This document shows positions 14,396 to 31,455 of a stretch of DNA of 38,469 nucleotides, piece after piece. A program made the translations under genes and the position numbers. The stretch lies in the IMG/VR virus record IMGVR_UViG_3300028571_000054, positions 1-38,469 of that record; one strand, 5' to 3'. The notes under the pieces are model-generated. The model was not told the origin of the DNA, did no database searches, and saw only the letters and a program-made list of their open reading frames with translations. Origin of the DNA: a virus. Numbering within the stretch: position 1 is the stretch's first letter; each line of letters begins with the position of its first letter.

Positions 14396-14905
14396 ATGAG
14401 TAACAAATTAGCAATGATTATACCTAGAAATTTATCTCCACACTTCACTTATAAAGAAGCTATTGCATCTCAGATAGCTGCTAGATATAAACTAGATAAC
14501 AGTATTCCAACTAAGGAACTGCTAGATGCAGCTATTAATACAGCAAATAACATGGAACTAGTAAGAACACTACTAGGTTCTAATCCAATAAGAGTAAGTT
14601 CTTGGTTCCGCTGTATTGCACTTAACCGCTTTCTAGGTTCTAAAGATACTTCCCAACATACTAAGTGTGAAGCAGTAGACTTTGACTGCGACTCTTATGG
14701 TACTCCACTAGAGATAGTAATAGCTATAGTTGAATCTGATATTAATTTCGACCAAATAATTCTAGAACACGACTGGGTGCATATCAGTTTTAAAATCGTT
14801 GCTAGCAATAATAGAAGGCAAGTGTTAACATTACTTAGTAATGGCAGATATGCAAAAGGTATAACTAACAAAGTAGGAAAGGCACATCCAAAATGGGTAT
14901 CTTAA
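14396..14905 (+). CDS. Endolysin, peptidase M15 family
   Basis: Likely cleaves peptidoglycan cross-bridge peptides at the end of infection. The 169 residues follow the M15 pattern: SPHFTYKEAIAS near the N-terminus, the strand IRVSSWFRC, then zinc ligands H88 (SQH), D95 (VDFD) and H129 (WVHIS). All three ligand positions are present, so it should be active. There is no signal peptide, so release depends on a holin. It overlaps the holin gene by 13 bases and has a good AAAGGA site. Confidence 0.85.
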   Translation: MSNKLAMIIPRNLSPHFTYKEAIASQIAARYKLDNSIPTKELLDAAINTANNMELVRTLLGSNPIRVSSWFRCIALNRFLGSKDTSQHTKCEAVDFDCDSYGTPLEIVIAIVESDINFDQIILEHDWVHISFKIVASNNRRQVLTLLSNGRYAKGITNKVGKAHPKWVS

Positions 14906-15387
14906 AGGAAATACTACCAACTATTGCTACTGCACTAGGTGGCCCACTAGCAGGATTAGCAGCAGAACTAGTATCTAAAGCATTAGGAGTTCCTACTAAA
15001 GACCCTAAAGCATTAGAAGGAATATTAGCTGGTATGCCACCTGATAAGTTAATACAACTTAAACAGATTGAATCAGACTTAAAAGTTAAACTAGCACAAC
15101 TAGGTTATGAGTCTGAAGCTAAGATTGAGGAATACAATGCTAGAGCATTAGAAGCAGTTAATGCTACTATGCAAGTAGAAGCTGCTAGTGAGCATTGGCA
15201 GACTTATAGCTGGAGACCATTCATTGGTTTTACCTTTGGTCTATATATTGCTAGTATGTTCATGTTACCTTTATTTGGAGTTACTCCAGTGGTAATGAGT
15301 CCTGACTTAGTAATAGCAGTAGGTGGTATACTTGGAGTTGCTAGCTGGTTTAGAGGTCAGAAGCAATTAGCAGAAACTAAATCTTAA
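14893..15387 (+). CDS. Holin, GTA_holin_3TM-like
   Basis: A 164-residue membrane protein. It has a hydrophobic N-terminal stretch (about 8-32), a long charged helical middle (50-100), the conserved block YSWRPFIG (105-112), a membrane segment (about 110-128) and a last one (about 138-152), ending in a basic tail. This layout and the SWRPF motif match three-TM holins first described in gene transfer agents. It should permeabilise the inner membrane so the M15 endolysin, whose gene it overlaps, reaches the wall. The AAAGG site lies inside the endolysin gene. Confidence 0.8.
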   Translation: MGILKEILPTIATALGGPLAGLAAELVSKALGVPTKDPKALEGILAGMPPDKLIQLKQIESDLKVKLAQLGYESEAKIEEYNARALEAVNATMQVEAASEHWQTYSWRPFIGFTFGLYIASMFMLPLFGVTPVVMSPDLVIAVGGILGVASWFRGQKQLAETKS

Positions 15388-15413: not shown

Positions 15414-16910
15414 ATGAATCAAAATAACTTAACTACTAGCTACCAAGATACACTAATTGCTAATAGGTTAAAACGAATAGAAGCTTGGAAAAAAGGTCCA
15501 ATGATACCAGCACCATTGAGACTTAATAATACTGCATATACTATTGGTACTGGTGAGATTCCAGCTAACGTAGTTAGATTTGCAGATGGTACTCACTGGA
15601 TATTAGCCACAGCAGGTACTACTGATGCAGCAGAACCAGTAGCTACTCCTATGGGCAGACCATTAACTGATGGTAGTTGTGTATGGTATCAAGACCAGTG
15701 GAGAACTGATAAATTAGCGGAAGGTGCGCCAACAGTTAAACCTGTTACTGCTGCACAACTTGCTGGTGAAGGACTTATATTTACCCGCTTTGCAGTAACT
15801 TCTGGCTTACCATTTGTAGTAGATTCAGAAGATGTTATTGTAGGTTCATTTAGTACTAACTACTTAAGTAGTTATAATCAAGTAGTTAACTTTAGTGGCG
15901 GTGGTAACTCCACTGGTGATGTAGTAGGTACTAACGCTGCTGGATTTAAAGGTGGAGTAGCTTGTACTAGAAGTTTTGCATATGACAAAGCAGCTCATAG
16001 TGAACTTACATTTGATGTTACTGACCATAAGTTCTCTTTAGGTTTCCATAACTTTGGCGCTCAGGCAATGGTAACTATTGATGGTAGATTAGTACAAGGA
16101 GAACCTAGTAGGTTTACTGTTGGTGGCGATGCTGGTCTTATCTATGACTTCAATGGCGAGTTCAAACGTAGAACTATTACAGTACCTGCTGCTGCACAAT
16201 TCAGAGGTGTAGGACTTACTGCTAAAGGTTTCGTAAGTGCAACTCCTAAAGGTAATGATACTATGTTACTTCTAGCTGATAGTTATGGTTCTACTAGTAA
16301 TCCATCATTATTCTTAATGGGAGTCATGGGATACCATCTTAAGAAAGAACTTGGCTTAAGTGGTATGATTAACTGCACTAGTGGTGGTACTGGGTACTTT
16401 AATAAAGTCACTGCACAGCAGTTAAATATGTTAGAACGATTAAACAATGTAGATAACATTGCTGCTTGGACATACTTAAATCCATCTCATATATTATTTG
16501 CTATGGGTAATAATGATGTAAATCAGAATGAAAGTAATGCCAGATATTACATGAGAGCTAGTTGGGAGAAAGCTAGAGGACTATTTCCTAATGCTAAGAT
16601 ATCAGTATGGACTTGTCATGGTGGTAGTACTGGACCTAGTGCTGGTACATTTGCTATGGGTGCTGCTATTAGAGCAGAGTTCAGAGCTTGGAATGACCCT
16701 AATAGTAGATTGATTGATATCTTAGGTACTTCTGCTGCACAGTCTATTGTGAGTGGTACTAGTAGAATTGACCTAGCTATCAATGCTGCTGAGAATGTTA
16801 GTTTTGTTGGTGGTTTTAATGATAACGCACATCCAAGTCCATTCGGTGCAAGGTACTTAGCTCAAAGATTAGCACAGTACATAAATGCAGCATGGAATGG
16901 TGAGTACTAA
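15414..16910 (+). CDS. SGNH/GDSL hydrolase-like tail protein
   Basis: A 498-residue protein with a beta-rich N-terminal half (about 1-280) and a C-terminal SGNH hydrolase domain. The family blocks are all present: ADSYGS with S290 (block I), SGGTG with a glycine at 324-325 (block II), GNND with N367 (block III) and DNAHP with D470 and H473 (block V). An active serine esterase is expected. In phages such domains often remove O-acetyl groups from capsule or LPS, so it may be a second receptor-processing tail protein. It follows the lysis genes and precedes the ejection proteins. Confidence 0.8.
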   Translation: MNQNNLTTSYQDTLIANRLKRIEAWKKGPMIPAPLRLNNTAYTIGTGEIPANVVRFADGTHWILATAGTTDAAEPVATPMGRPLTDGSCVWYQDQWRTDKLAEGAPTVKPVTAAQLAGEGLIFTRFAVTSGLPFVVDSEDVIVGSFSTNYLSSYNQVVNFSGGGNSTGDVVGTNAAGFKGGVACTRSFAYDKAAHSELTFDVTDHKFSLGFHNFGAQAMVTIDGRLVQGEPSRFTVGGDAGLIYDFNGEFKRRTITVPAAAQFRGVGLTAKGFVSATPKGNDTMLLLADSYGSTSNPSLFLMGVMGYHLKKELGLSGMINCTSGGTGYFNKVTAQQLNMLERLNNVDNIAAWTYLNPSHILFAMGNNDVNQNESNARYYMRASWEKARGLFPNAKISVWTCHGGSTGPSAGTFAMGAAIRAEFRAWNDPNSRLIDILGTSAAQSIVSGTSRIDLAINAAENVSFVGGFNDNAHPSPFGARYLAQRLAQYINAAWNGEY

Positions 16911-27104: not shown

Positions 27105-27376
27105 TAGTTACCTTGCAATTCTTCTTTAATAGATGCCATTGATTGTTCACCGAGTTCTTTCATATCTTCGTTAGAGAGTCCTAGTATTCTTAAGATAAGA
27201 GTACTTAGTGCTATACTTCTGCCAATGCCAGTGATAAGATGCGGTGCTATCTCTGTTAGTTGTCCTGTCTTTTGAGTACTAGCTATAGAAGATAGTACTG
27301 CCAGTTGTGCTTCATTAAGAGATACGAATAGTACTCTTAATGTATTAAGTTCTTTTTCTGTAAATTCTTTTGCCAT
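27104..27376 (-). CDS. Small protein between polymerase and helicase, unknown
   Basis: A 90-residue, mainly helical, cysteine-free protein. Helices are likely at about 6-30 and 50-85, with a hydrophobic patch (LSTLILRILGL) in the second. Both ends overlap neighbours by one base, so it is tightly coupled to the polymerase and the DUF3987 helicase. That suggests a replisome accessory (loader, clamp or adaptor), but no motif proves it. Confidence 0.55.
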   Translation of the reverse strand: MAKEFTEKELNTLRVLFVSLNEAQLAVLSSIASTQKTGQLTEIAPHLITGIGRSIALSTLILRILGLSNEDMKELGEQSMASIKEELQGN

Positions 27377-29592
27377 TATATTTCACTCCAGTATTTAGCA
27401 CCCTTACCATCTTTACCAGCTTTAATATCTGCTGGTACTATATAAGTGTAAGTGACGCCAGTGGTTGATTTAATTGTTAAAGGTATTTCCATTCTCTTGC
27501 GTACTTCTTCTGCATAGTACTCCTTTCCTTCTTTAAATTGAAATAATAAACTATCATGGATTTGAGCATTTAATACAAACTCATCTGCATGAGGTATTGC
27601 TAGTTCATAAAATACTTTCATGAAACCTTTGTTTAGTTTCATAGCATTAAGACTTTGTGGACAGTGTGCTACTAGTGCATTAAGATGCATCTTATTAGTT
27701 CTAGGATTACCAAAACAGTAGCGAGTCCAGCCAGTAGCACCTACCAGTAGCCTAGTCTTAGCTACTGTATTAATAACATATTCATAGTATGATTTCTTAA
27801 TCATAGGATAAGTCTTATGGAATGTATCAAGTAAGTACTGTGTTACCTGTGCGCTAGTCCAAAACTTAGGAAGTCCTAATAGCTTCTGTGCCATCCATAC
27901 CTTTTCTTCTCCCATAGTATCTACCATTACATACTTACCCATATTATAAGATGCACCATGATTAGTATTCTTAGCTAGGTTTCTAATAGGAGTATTAAGT
28001 ACTTCTTTAGTACTATCATCATACAGTTGCTCATATGGTATACCAAAGAAAGCAGAAGCGTTAGTACAGTGGAAATCTTTAGTAGATTCTACTGCTGCAA
28101 TTAGCGCAGTATCACCACTGATATAAGCAGTATCTCTACTCTCTGCTTGCTTTAAGTCACACTCTGCTATCCTATAATTAGGAAAAGCTGCTAATGTACT
28201 CTTAACTATCTTACCTCTAGGTATGTTCTGTATCTGTAGTCCACACCAGAAATGATGTTCCATACTAGCTAGTCTACCAGTATCAGTACCCCAAGGAGTT
28301 AAGCTGTATAGTATTACATCCTTATACTCTTTACCAGCTACTAGATAAGTACTAAGAAGTTTTCTTATCTTTCTTAGCTCTAGTATAGTGTTAAGTATTC
28401 TACTATTAAGTGGATGTTTCAGAGCCGCCTTTTTCAAAGCTGTTTCATCACTACTCTTGATATCAGTACAACCTAGTATGCGGAGTAGTTCCATTACCTG
28501 CTTAGAACTATTAGCATTGAAGTTTGGTACAGTCATTGCTTCTAGTTGTCTTTGCTTCTCTACTCTTAGTTCTTCTTGCTTGTTATATGCTTCTTCTAAC
28601 TTAGCTTTATCTCTTAGTATGCCAGTCATTTCACACATATGACATGGGAATACAAGAGGAAACTCTTGCTTGTAGTTTTCTTTCGCCCAAGCTGGTGCTT
28701 CTAATAACCATAGCATAGCTACCATTAATGTATGCCATGCATCTAGTGCATTGTATTTGTAGTACTCATAGCGGTCTTGTGTTTGCGCTAGGTCTTTCCA
28801 GTAGAAAGATTCACGTATGAAGAAAGAAGCAATAGCATCAAGAGACTTAGGTAATTCACTGTACCAACAGTGCATCATAGCAGCAGTGTCAAATAGATAA
28901 TTATGCAGTGGTGCATTATACATAGCTAGATATGCTATATCATACTTACCATTCTGTAGTACTTTAGCTGGCTGTATGTAGTTCAGTGTGCGCATCCAAG
29001 CTACTGCTTGCATTGTATCCATTGGTAGTACATAGCTCATACATACTCCACTAGCAGTAATACCTGTATAACCTATACATTCTATTCTTGGCGGTGCTGG
29101 AGTAGTTTCTATATCTACTGCTACTAGCATACAGGAAGAAAGAAATGCCAATGCCTCAGTATAATTTTCTGTAGTTATTAGTGTCCATGAGAACTTAGGC
29201 AGATTCTTCCACTTGGAAGGAGTAGTAAGTTTAGAAGCATACCTCTTAGTTAGAAACTCACCATAAGGTACAGTTACTAGTTGCTTAAGAGGACTGATAA
29301 ACACATAGGTAATACCATTCCTCACTACTAATGAGCCAGCATAATCACTGATAGCTGGTGCTTTCTTTAGTGGGAATAGTTTAGATAAAAGTTTCGGTGA
29401 AGTACTTAGTACTTTAGTTATACCATTACTCCTGCATTTATGTTCTACTTCTACTAATGTAAGAGGTTCAGTAAAAGATACACTTACAGCATTGTTACTA
29501 ACACAAGGCTTTAAGCGTTGTATGTATTCTTTATCTTCGAATGTACCTAAGAAGTATATTCTTTCACCTATTGCTGTACTGGTATTATCCAT
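27376..29592 (-). CDS. DNA polymerase, family A, with 3'-5' exonuclease
   Basis: The replicative polymerase (738 residues). The exonuclease domain is intact: D160/E162 (VDIET), D218 (NGKYD) and Y280/D284 (YNALDA). The polymerase motifs are TGRLAS (438-443), motif A with D479 (CDLKQAESR), motif B R537-K541-NTNHGASYN (537-550) and motif C HDS (679-681, D680). Two differences from E. coli Pol I: His545 replaces Phe762 in motif B, and Ser681 replaces the Glu of HDE. There is no 5'-3' nuclease domain. The N-terminal 130 residues are unassigned. Start overlaps the small upstream gene by eight bases. Confidence 0.92.
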   Translation of the reverse strand: MDNTSTAIGERIYFLGTFEDKEYIQRLKPCVSNNAVSVSFTEPLTLVEVEHKCRSNGITKVLSTSPKLLSKLFPLKKAPAISDYAGSLVVRNGITYVFISPLKQLVTVPYGEFLTKRYASKLTTPSKWKNLPKFSWTLITTENYTEALAFLSSCMLVAVDIETTPAPPRIECIGYTGITASGVCMSYVLPMDTMQAVAWMRTLNYIQPAKVLQNGKYDIAYLAMYNAPLHNYLFDTAAMMHCWYSELPKSLDAIASFFIRESFYWKDLAQTQDRYEYYKYNALDAWHTLMVAMLWLLEAPAWAKENYKQEFPLVFPCHMCEMTGILRDKAKLEEAYNKQEELRVEKQRQLEAMTVPNFNANSSKQVMELLRILGCTDIKSSDETALKKAALKHPLNSRILNTILELRKIRKLLSTYLVAGKEYKDVILYSLTPWGTDTGRLASMEHHFWCGLQIQNIPRGKIVKSTLAAFPNYRIAECDLKQAESRDTAYISGDTALIAAVESTKDFHCTNASAFFGIPYEQLYDDSTKEVLNTPIRNLAKNTNHGASYNMGKYVMVDTMGEEKVWMAQKLLGLPKFWTSAQVTQYLLDTFHKTYPMIKKSYYEYVINTVAKTRLLVGATGWTRYCFGNPRTNKMHLNALVAHCPQSLNAMKLNKGFMKVFYELAIPHADEFVLNAQIHDSLLFQFKEGKEYYAEEVRKRMEIPLTIKSTTGVTYTYIVPADIKAGKDGKGAKYWSEI

Positions 29593-29800
29593 GTAATGGT
29601 ACTTCCACTATTTCAGGTGTATCATATATAAACATAAGACTGTTATCAGCTATGTATTGTTCTGCACTAGCTTTAGTAGCATGAGCTGATTGGAAGTGTT
29701 TACCTACATGAGTTTCATGTACGAATACTATGAAGATAGTAGATGGAGTAGTTTCTTCTTCACCTTTAAGACTTCTAATCATTTCTTCATATTCATCCAT
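29585..29800 (-). CDS. Small acidic protein before the polymerase, unknown
   Basis: A 71-residue protein with a compact pattern TIFIVFVHETHVGKHF, then a helix (ATKASAEQYIAD) and a final strand (EIVEVPLHG), likely a small alpha/beta fold. GAAAGGA lies before the ATG. Its start codon overlaps the stop of a 12-codon leader ORF, and its own end overlaps the polymerase start by eight bases, so all three are translationally coupled. Confidence 0.6.
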   Translation of the reverse strand: MDEYEEMIRSLKGEEETTPSTIFIVFVHETHVGKHFQSAHATKASAEQYIADNSLMFIYDTPEIVEVPLHG

Positions 29801-29838
29801 TATATTATCCTTTCATTCCATAAACTTTTTATAATCAT
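29800..29838 (-). CDS. Possible 12-codon leader peptide
   Basis: ATG at 29838..29836 with an excellent ribosome site (AAGGAG, 6-base spacing) opens a 12-residue frame (MIIKSLWNERII). Its stop overlaps the next ATG as TAATG. The strong initiation signal on such a short frame suggests a real leader, for reinitiation or attenuation-like control of the gene cluster leading into the polymerase. Confidence 0.45.
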   Translation of the reverse strand: MIIKSLWNERII

Positions 29839-29973
29839 TACTATCTCCTTTATAATTATTAATACCTACTCCATAACACAACAAGCATTGTCCGCAACAG
29901 AACTTATCTATCTCTAGGATGCTGATGTGCTACAGGCTAGATACTTTATATATCTAACTACCTTGCAAGGATT

Positions 29974-30321
29974 CTATTGTATTGCTGGACATAGAGGATT
30001 CTGTTCTCTATCCCAAGTTATTCCATCTGCTGATGTTGCACCATTCTTATAATAATATGTTTCTACCTCTTTAGTATCTCTATTAACATATGTATATACT
30101 AATGATAGACAAGCATCCTTACCAGCATTTACATCTTCTATTAGTGCTATATGAGGTGAGCAGTTCTTAATCTTTTCTACTGTACCACTAAGAGTCTTAG
30201 TAGGTTTATTGTTTACAAACATAAATACTTTCTTACCAGTATCAGTAGATGCAAAACATAGTAGTGCGCTAGCTTCTAATGATAGTGTTGATAAAAGTAC
30301 TGCAATTAATAGTCTTGACAT
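29974..30321 (-). CDS. Exported four-cysteine protein, unknown
   Basis: A 115-residue secreted protein. The signal peptide has a basic start (MSR), a hydrophobic core (LLIAVLLSTLSL) and a likely cleavage after ASA (about residue 19). The mature part has four cysteines (C22, C54, C71, C111) that could form two disulfides, and a beta-like, Lys/Thr-rich sequence. I chose the ATG at 30321 rather than an upstream frame because AGGAGA sits before it and the signal peptide starts there. It lies between hairpins and the polymerase cluster. Confidence 0.65.
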   Translation of the reverse strand: MSRLLIAVLLSTLSLEASALLCFASTDTGKKVFMFVNNKPTKTLSGTVEKIKNCSPHIALIEDVNAGKDACLSLVYTYVNRDTKEVETYYYKNGATSADGITWDREQNPLCPAIQ

Positions 30322-30357
30322 TTTACTTCTCCTATTGGCGGTGGTTAGTAACAACTA

Positions 30358-30390
30358 AAGGACTCCAGTATAAGTACTAGTGAAGTCCTT
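30358..30390 (-). promoter_or_regulatory. RNA hairpin upstream of the exported protein gene
   Basis: AAGGACTCCA (30358-30367) pairs with TGAAGTCCTT (30381-30390). In the leftward transcript the odd pair is a G-U wobble, so the 10-bp stem is better as minus-strand RNA. There is no T-run right after it. It may be a terminator, a processing site or an mRNA stabiliser. Confidence 0.5.
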
Positions 30391-30392
30391 AG

Positions 30393-30409
30393 ATTGTGTC
30401 TATCACAAT
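30393..30409. repeat. 6-bp inverted repeat ATTGTG-TCTAT-CACAAT
   Basis: Perfect half-sites at 30393-30398 and 30404-30409, separated by five bases, just past the stop of the upstream exported gene. It is in tandem with the larger hairpin at 30358-30390. It could be an operator or a small hairpin. Confidence 0.5.
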
Positions 30410-30415
30410 ATTATA

Positions 30416-30919
30416 CTAATAAGGTGAAGTTGTACCATCGTAGTTATAAGTACTGTACTCACTAGTCTCTTGCATCACTGCTAGTAAAGCAGTACAAGCT
30501 GGATTAGCTTTAGCATATGCTTTACTCTTAGAGCAAGCTAATGTATCAGCTACATCGTACTGCTGGCGATGAAAAGCATAGCAAATATCATTGAAGCTCA
30601 TACCAGTAGTACCACTGAAACTAAGAAAGAATACACTGAAAGCAGCACTATCCTGAGTTAGTATTGAACACTTGTCTACATTGGTAGTACTTGGTGCAAT
30701 AGCAGTAGCAGCTGTCTTAGGAATGTTAGTACCTTCTACTACTGTAGATGCAGTAGTAATACTGTTGTCTTGCACAATACCTATCTGACCTTGTGATTGT
30801 ACTTGACCTTGCGCTTGACCTAGTAATGGATGCGCTTCTGCTACTGTCATTACTATCAGTGTTACTATAATTGAAAGAAAGAATATACTACCTAACCTTA
30901 CATACTTAGATTTTAACAT
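30416..30919 (-). CDS. Exported or membrane-anchored four-cysteine protein
   Basis: A 167-residue protein with a basic N-terminus and one long hydrophobic segment (about 10-27), possible cleavage after AEA (about 29), then a Gln/Gly-rich linker (33-48). The C-terminal domain has four cysteines (C84, C113, C129, C142) and resembles in layout small exported proteins of other podoviruses, but the function is unknown to me. The second ATG (30919) is preferred because GGAGA overlaps the first. A terminator-like hairpin separates it from the gene before it. Confidence 0.65.
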   Translation of the reverse strand: MLKSKYVRLGSIFFLSIIVTLIVMTVAEAHPLLGQAQGQVQSQGQIGIVQDNSITTASTVVEGTNIPKTAATAIAPSTTNVDKCSILTQDSAAFSVFFLSFSGTTGMSFNDICYAFHRQQYDVADTLACSKSKAYAKANPACTALLAVMQETSEYSTYNYDGTTSPY

Positions 30920-30961
30920 TTGGTTCTCCATATAGAAATAAAAAGATAAAAGATATTAGAA

Positions 30962-30993
30962 GTAGGAACTACAAAAAGTATAGTAGTTCCTAC
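30962..30993 (-). terminator. Terminator-like hairpin between SSB-like and exported genes
   Basis: A perfect 11-bp stem, GTAGGAACTAC (30962-30972) with GTAGTTCCTAC (30983-30993), and a 10-base loop. In the leftward transcript it is followed by a T-rich stretch (TTCTAATATCTTTT) rather than a pure T-run. Probably a partial terminator that lowers expression of the exported genes downstream. Confidence 0.65.
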
Positions 30994-31017: not shown

Positions 31018-31455
31018 CTAGATTAATGCTATTGAAACAATACCAGTGAAGTATTGTTCACGTTTCTTATCATAACGTTTCTTAGTAACTACTAATGCTT
31101 GAGCGCCATTAACTGCTTCAAACAATGCTCGCATAGTAGTTGCACCAGTAGCTTCCTTAAGACCTGCTGTATCTTTCTTAAGACTGCCTTGACCGTACTC
31201 GTTATCTAACATATAGAGAATACTAGTTTCAGCACCTGCTACTAATGGTTTATCTTCCGCTGGATTCTCTAGTTCTTCTGTACTTACTGCTACTAATGAT
31301 AACTCAATAGCACTCTTAGCATTGATAGTCTTAGCTTCAAACTTAATAGTACATACGTGTGCGCCATTTGGATATGGTAAGAACTCTGGCATATCTGCTA
31401 AGTCATCTAATTGACCATCTAATAATGAATCTAATGCTGCATTTGAATCTGACAT
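31018..31455 (-). CDS. Putative ssDNA-binding or replication accessory protein
   Basis: A 145-residue acidic protein. The first 25 residues are Asp/Leu-rich. From about 28 to 145 it shows a strand pattern (GAHVCTIKFEAKTI, SAIELSLVAV, ETSILYMLDN, QALVVTKKRY, QYFTGIVSIALI) that could be an OB fold. It lies next to a dNMP kinase, a Sak4-like ATPase and a Cas4-like nuclease, where phage SSBs often occur. The fold and the role are inference. Confidence 0.45.
   Translation of the reverse strand: MSDSNAALDSLLDGQLDDLADMPEFLPYPNGAHVCTIKFEAKTINAKSAIELSLVAVSTEELENPAEDKPLVAGAETSILYMLDNEYGQGSLKKDTAGLKEATGATTMRALFEAVNGAQALVVTKKRYDKKREQYFTGIVSIALI

What the first reader, a model, noticed from the sequence alone, without database searches (positions are those of the whole stretch)
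29974..30993. Two exported four-cysteine proteins in a hairpin-bounded cassette inside the replication operon
Between the SSB-like and polymerase genes lie two proteins with signal or anchor sequences and four cysteines each, separated from neighbours and from each other by strong hairpins, in the only loosely spaced part of an otherwise overlapping operon. This looks like an inserted accessory unit. Early export suggests superinfection exclusion, envelope protection or interference with a host surface defence.
Basis: partly seen in the sequence, partly recalled or inferred. Interest (0 to 1): 0.6.

Follow-up and report, generated by a model that had tools for sequence, protein, structure and literature searches.

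The report
Orphan exported phage gene pair
An uncultured podovirus carries, in a fast-changing gap of its DNA-replication operon, two small genes that its sampled relatives lack, whose products look built to be exported to the bacterial envelope and disulfide-bonded; most likely they protect the infected cell, for example against a second phage, but that is untested.

Summary
The pair is real. On the minus strand, between an SSB-like gene and a family-A DNA polymerase, lie B (30416-30919, 167 aa) and A (29974-30321, 115 aa). Both have good ribosome-binding sites, codon usage like the rest of the operon, an N-terminal signal-peptide-like segment with an A-x-A site, and four cysteines (3.5% and 2.4%, against 0.7% for the proteome). 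The 'inserted accessory unit' reading holds: in 79 relatives the SSB-pol gap runs from 77 to 2349 bp and holds nothing or unrelated small genes, and no relative encodes A or B. Both are orphans in every library searched. The 'hairpin-bounded cassette' reading fails in part. The hairpin beside the SSB-like gene belongs to that gene: 59 of 79 relatives have a significant hairpin there, against 4-7 in control positions, including relatives with a nearly empty gap. B resembles in layout (signal peptide, QGQ linker, four C-terminal Cys) a diverse family of phage proteins around phrog_20531, some of them in early or replication regions, but profile tests gave no support for membership. Superinfection exclusion by a periplasmic disulfide protein is the most plausible function but is inferred only. 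This is ordinary accessory-gene biology with unknown genes.

The parts
29974..30321 (-). Gene A: 115-aa protein, signal peptide (MSRLLIAVLLSTLSLEASA|LLC...), 4 Cys in the mature ~96 aa; no lipobox (A-L-L-C)
   Evidence: ORF; SD and codon usage; no homologue found
30416..30919 (-). Gene B: 167-aa protein (171 if ATG 30931), signal peptide or anchor (MLKSKYVRLGSIFFLSIIVTLIVMTVAEA|HP), QAQGQVQSQGQ linker, C-terminal half with 4 Cys
   Evidence: ORF; SD and codon usage; no homologue found; layout like the phrog_20531-type family but profile test negative
30962..30993 (-). Perfect 11-bp hairpin 25 nt downstream of the SSB-like stop codon; a lineage-conserved 3' element of that gene rather than a cassette boundary
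30346..30402 (-). Imperfect long hairpin between B and A (25-nt arms, 72% complementary)
29585..29800 (-). 71-aa ORF with SD, no Cys, overlapping the pol start by 8 bp; third occupant of the slot
29801..29973 (-). 173-bp stretch with no assigned gene between A and the 71-aa ORF; moderately structured
   Evidence: z -2.65; no Rfam match
31018..31455 (-). SSB-like gene, upstream edge of the slot; homologues found in 79 relatives
27376..29592 (-). Family-A DNA polymerase, downstream edge of the slot
   Evidence: PF00476, 9.3e-27; phrog_17, 1.9e-62

Best explanation
A and B are lineage-specific accessory genes sitting in a hypervariable slot between the SSB-like gene and the polymerase gene. Shown: they are coding, absent from 79 relatives at that place, and unrelated to anything in the libraries searched. 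Predicted from sequence: both are Sec-exported and disulfide-bonded in the periplasm, A as a small soluble protein after cleavage at ASA|LL, B with a flexible Q/G linker carrying a Cys-rich C-terminal part. Inferred: they are transcribed with the replication operon by read-through of the SSB-like gene's 3' hairpin, so they reach the envelope early in infection. There they most likely protect the infected cell by blocking entry of competing phages (superinfection exclusion, by binding a receptor, an incoming tail lysozyme or a DNA-entry step), in the manner of T4 Spackle, T5 Llp or Rtp45, without being homologous to them.
For: Slot hypervariability and absence in relatives; coding and SD evidence; signal-peptide-like N-termini and Cys enrichment; relatives carry other, unrelated small membrane proteins or a lipoprotein in the same early region, e.g. 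a 69-aa LTAC-lipobox protein in L077 and L078, so envelope-directed early accessory genes recur. Published precedents for early or small periplasmic disulfide proteins doing this job: Spackle (PMC7677548), and Rtp45 and Llp (PMC12685063).
Against: No sequence or fold link to any known exclusion protein: PADLOC, Pfam, PHROGs, NCBIfam and PDB give nothing credible; single-sequence AlphaFold models are uninformative (pLDDT 44 and 48), so no fold search was run. No muralytic domain was found by Pfam in the four large tail or virion proteins scanned, so an obvious self-lysozyme target for a Spackle-like inhibitor is missing. Neither protein has a lipobox, unlike Llp and Rtp45. Exclusion is only one of several envelope functions that would fit.
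Confidence: 0.4

Rival explanations
1. Host-takeover envelope effectors: A and B act on a host periplasmic or outer-membrane process (e.g. an envelope stress sensor, protease, LPS or peptidoglycan synthesis) to favour replication, not on competing phages.
For: Early position, predicted export, orphan status and variable slot fit any host-directed effector. The phrog_20531-type protein of Achromobacter phage JWAlpha sits in its early region next to an anti-restriction (Lar family) gene; the one in Agrobacterium phage JP1 lies among many small hypothetical and membrane proteins.
Against: No host target suggested; neither protein resembles a known enzyme or inhibitor.
Confidence: 0.25
2. B is a very divergent member of the exported QGQ-linker, four-Cys family represented by phrog_20531, whose function is unknown, and A is an independent neighbour.
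For: Same order of parts: signal peptide, QGQ low-complexity linker, C1-x28-C2-x15-C3-x12-C4 near the C-terminus, D-x-C at C2. Of 12 signal-peptide plus QGQ proteins found in IMG/VR, 7 carry that C-terminal domain. One family member (L110) lies in a region with the same exonuclease (phrog_1218), Sak4-like (phrog_124) and family-A polymerase genes as the window. Best local match B vs L103: 44% over 25 aa, E 0.066.
Against: Profile built without B scores B at 2.3 bits (9 members) and 1.2 bits (12 members), E over 100; 501 of about 3000 Cys-fixed shuffles score as well; hhalign probability 0.1%. B does not hit phrog_20531.
Confidence: 0.3
3. A and/or B are virion or ejected proteins (e.g. periplasm-spanning or capsid-decorating) encoded away from the structural block.
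For: Some phrog_20531-type relatives (L195, L212) lie near portal or connector genes; the one in MW202481 lies upstream of an annotated lysozyme gene.
Against: The genes are on the replication strand between SSB and pol; signal peptides are unusual for ordinary capsid or tail proteins (general knowledge). In JWAlpha and JWDelta, virion proteins identified from gel bands came, but for one Ig-like protein, from genes on the complementary strand (PMC3915230), while JJJB_0025 is on the early strand; only major bands were sampled.
Confidence: 0.1
4. Lysis-timing regulators: a periplasmic antiholin-like protein such as T4 RI, which also has a cleavable signal peptide.
For: Small exported proteins fit; [quoted passage not shown]
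Against: The holin-like gene (14893-15387, phrog_3427 E 2e-10) and M15 endolysin gene (14396-14905) lie in the structural block on the other strand; A and B sit in the replication operon.
Confidence: 0.08
5. Chance open frames, not genes.
For: Orphan status.
Against: SDs, codon usage as in neighbours, signal peptides, ORF length in a 37% GC genome.
Confidence: 0.02

Closest known systems
phrog_20531-type exported QGQ-linker/four-Cys phage proteins (e.g. Achromobacter phage JWAlpha JJJB_0025, Agrobacterium phage JP1_110)
   Same: Signal peptide, Q/G/N/S-rich linker, four C-terminal Cys with similar spacing; some members in early or replication regions (B only)
   Different: No significant profile match; B lacks about 7 residues between C2 and C3; A has no resemblance; function of the family unknown
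T4 Spackle (gp61.3)
   Same: Early gene, small periplasmic protein with cleaved signal and disulfide (PMC7677548)
   Different: No sequence match (PDB searches); Spackle is a 75-aa helical bundle with one disulfide inhibiting the gp5 tail lysozyme; no muralytic domain found by Pfam in the scanned tail proteins here
T5 Llp / phage Rtp Rtp45 exclusion lipoproteins
   Same: Small phage-encoded exported proteins acting from the periplasm; Rtp45 has a disulfide (PMC12685063)
   Different: They are lipoproteins; A and B have no lipobox; no sequence match
Phage morons
   Same: Accessory genes inserted in a variable position beside a terminator-like hairpin
   Different: No own promoter-like site on the coding strand between SSB and B; the hairpin belongs to the SSB-like gene; no sign of lysogenic expression

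Membership tests
phrog_20531-type exported QGQ/four-Cys proteins (B) | Significant profile match of the Cys domain | tested here: not met
   2.3 and 1.2 bits, within shuffle range; hhalign 0.1%; no phrog_20531 hit
phrog_20531-type exported QGQ/four-Cys proteins (B) | Signal peptide, Q/G-rich linker, four C-terminal Cys | tested here: met
   features read from sequence with simple hydropathy rules
T5 Llp / Rtp45-type exclusion lipoproteins | Lipobox ([LVI][ASTVI][GAS]C) after the signal sequence | tested here: not met
   A has A-L-L-C; B has no Cys near its cleavage site
T4 Spackle family | Sequence similarity to solved Spackle structures | tested here: not met
   phmmer against PDB up to E 10: no match for A or B
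T4 Spackle family | Inhibits a tail lysozyme | not testable with these tools
   no Pfam muralytic domain in the four large tail/virion proteins scanned
Moron (autonomous accessory gene) | Absent from close relatives at the same place | tested here: met
   0 of 79 relatives; nearest relatives share only ~50% polymerase identity, so 'close' is relative
Moron (autonomous accessory gene) | Own promoter upstream | tested here: not met
   no sigma-70-like site on the minus strand between 31018 and 30931; other promoter types not covered
Moron (autonomous accessory gene) | Own terminator | tested here: inconclusive
   hairpin between B and A with a weak T-run; none clear after A
Superinfection-exclusion protein | Expression blocks adsorption or DNA entry of related phages | not testable with these tools
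   needs a laboratory assay

The most novel reading that the evidence does not exclude
A and B form a two-part, disulfide-bonded envelope-blocking system of a new protein fold, delivered early in infection from a hypervariable 'envelope-defence' slot that this podovirus lineage reloads with unrelated genes.
Probability: 0.08. Interest if true: 0.6.

Novelty: new member of a known kind. Interest (0 to 1): 0.3.

Why it matters
Accessory slots beside replication genes are where phages keep fast-changing host-directed genes. This one is now mapped in 79 relatives, so its contents can be mined for envelope-acting proteins. The pair itself is untested and has no known relatives, so it could be a new exclusion factor, but nothing yet makes it exceptional.

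Tried and rejected
Homologue searches for A and B in phage genomes, IMG/VR by peptide patterns, 37 whole relatives, 369 genomes drawn from the class of a relative's MAG, Pfam, PHROGs, NCBIfam, PADLOC and PDB: nothing credible. Weak whole-genome hits of A fell inside an aminotransferase reading frame (glutamate-1-semialdehyde type by inspection) and of B in a frame with three stops, so they are chance. Single-sequence AlphaFold models too poor for a fold search. A consensus of the QGQ/four-Cys family written from memory found nothing; real members were then found by a degenerate DNA pattern, and the membership test for B failed. A second linker pattern (QAQGQVQ) gave no exported four-Cys proteins. 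My automatic count of U-tails after the SSB hairpins missed stems of 48 nt or more and is not used. Promoter scan: fewer sites than in shuffles, so uninformative. Rfam: no match.

Full report
What is there. The window is a 38,469-base IMG/VR virus record, 37% GC. The replication genes are on the minus strand. Reading with that strand: PD-(D/E)XK exonuclease, Sak4-like ATPase, deoxynucleoside monophosphate kinase, SSB-like protein (31018-31455), B (30416-30919), A (29974-30321), a 71-aa ORF (29585-29800), family-A DNA polymerase (27376-29592), primase/helicase. The closest named relatives by polymerase are Aeromonas phage P5, EBPR podovirus 3, Polaromonas phage Tiera and the PaP2/119X Pseudomonas phages, at 29-34% identity; closer relatives (47-54%) are uncultured IMG/VR contigs. 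Gram-negative hosts are therefore likely (inference).

The two proteins. A starts MSRLLIAVLLSTLSLEASA|LLC and B starts MLKSKYVRLGSIFFLSIIVTLIVMTVAEA|HP: charged start, hydrophobic core, A-x-A-type site. Signal peptides were judged by these rules, not by a dedicated predictor. Each has four Cys. SDs (AGGAG for A; GGAG for B's second ATG) and codon log-odds equal to those of SSB and pol show that they are genes. Cys density is 3.5% and 2.4% against 0.72% for the 37 genes counted; taken one at a time P is 0.010 and 0.034, so the Cys counts alone are modest evidence.

The slot. In 79 relatives with both neighbours in hand the interval between SSB-like stop and pol start runs from 77 to 2349 bp, median 361. 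It is empty or holds diverse small ORFs. No relative has a match to A or B, neither in the fetched loci (tblastn E up to 10, only chance fragments) nor in 37 whole records. With a strict signal-peptide rule, no slot ORF of the 79 relatives is exported, although small membrane proteins and one lipoprotein (69 aa, LTAC lipobox, L077 and L078) occur elsewhere in the early region. So the occupant is unique to this phage in the sample, while the slot itself is a general feature.

The hairpins. The hairpin 30962-30993 lies 25 nt after the SSB-like stop codon. The 90 nt after that stop codon fold better than shuffles (z below -2) in 59 of 79 relatives, median z -3.5, against 7 of 79 inside SSB, 4 of 79 before SSB, 5 of 76 after pol and 6 of 79 inside pol (Fisher P about 6e-18; the relatives are related, so this P overstates independence). 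Loci with a near-empty slot (L035, L039, L040, gap 98 bp) have it too. It is therefore a 3' element of the SSB-like gene, probably a partial terminator or mRNA-stabilising stem (in several relatives, such as L012, L033 and L036, the stem runs into four or more T; in the window the T-run is broken). The hairpin between B and A (30346-30402) is not explained by the SSB-like gene. The stretch before the 71-aa ORF is less structured. The 'hairpin-bounded cassette' picture is thus half right.

A family that B looks like. A degenerate DNA pattern for GQ[AS]QGQ[AS]Q in IMG/VR brought in 120 stretches. Among the proteins with a signal-like start and such a linker, 7 of 12 end in a domain with two to four Cys. 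Members match phrog_20531, of unknown function, and occur in Achromobacter phages JWAlpha and JWDelta (N4-like), Agrobacterium phage JP1, and, unannotated, in MW202481. One (L110) lies in the same region as the same exonuclease, Sak4-like and polymerase families as in the window; the JWAlpha one lies in the early region; two (L195, L212) lie near portal or connector genes. B has the same layout, but profiles of 9 and 12 members score it at 2.3 and 1.2 bits, inside the range of shuffles, and hhalign gives 0.1%. B is therefore not filed as a member; the resemblance may be convergent low-complexity plus disulfide design.

Function. Nothing computed here identifies one. From knowledge of other phages, exclusion of competitors is a well-documented job for early exported disulfide proteins without enzymatic motifs; T4 Spackle (PMC7677548), Rtp45 and T5 Llp (PMC12685063) are worked examples. 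I put 0.4 on this class, 0.25 on other host-envelope effects, and little on virion, lysis or non-coding readings. The 0.3 on B as a divergent phrog_20531-type protein is about ancestry and does not exclude the functional readings. The steps shown are coding and absence from relatives; export and disulfides are predicted; early expression and exclusion are inferred.

Verdict. It is an ordinary though uncharacterised accessory pair.

Noticed in passing
window 30962-30993 and the same place in L002-L081: A strong hairpin directly after the SSB-like gene is kept in about three quarters of 79 diverged relatives although its sequence varies; terminator-like in several. A conserved 3' element of the SSB-like gene.
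   Followed up: partly
L217:5803-6309 (MW202481, Manatee Spring podovirus): Unannotated ORF with signal peptide and four Cys, a member of the phrog_20531-type family, upstream of the gene annotated 'transport protein tonB' and close to a lysozyme gene.
   Followed up: partly
L077:1686-1895 and L078:476-685: 69-aa protein with a clear lipobox (LTAC) and three Cys in the early operon of a relative: a candidate exclusion lipoprotein.
   Followed up: no
L110:133-9741: Exported QGQ/four-Cys protein ahead of exonuclease, Sak4-like, ParB-methyltransferase and polymerase genes in a different phage lineage.
   Followed up: partly
window 15414-16910: Protein with an SGNH-hydrolase-like stretch by eye and a weak phrog_10327 (hydrolase) match after the lysis genes; possible tail-spike esterase.
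   Followed up: no
window 29801-29973: 173-bp stretch without a gene, moderately structured, between A and the 71-aa ORF; unexplained.
   Followed up: no
L086, L087, L088: Contigs of this phage lineage are binned in MAGs labelled Coxiella, Anaerolineae and Thermoprotei; such different labels suggest binning errors rather than hosts.
   Followed up: no
L095, L104, L112, L119 and others: Proteins starting MKHIRTFE.. end in very long GQAQ repeats followed by an acidic tail (..EEGEEELPA), without signal peptide; many copies in IMG/VR.
   Followed up: no
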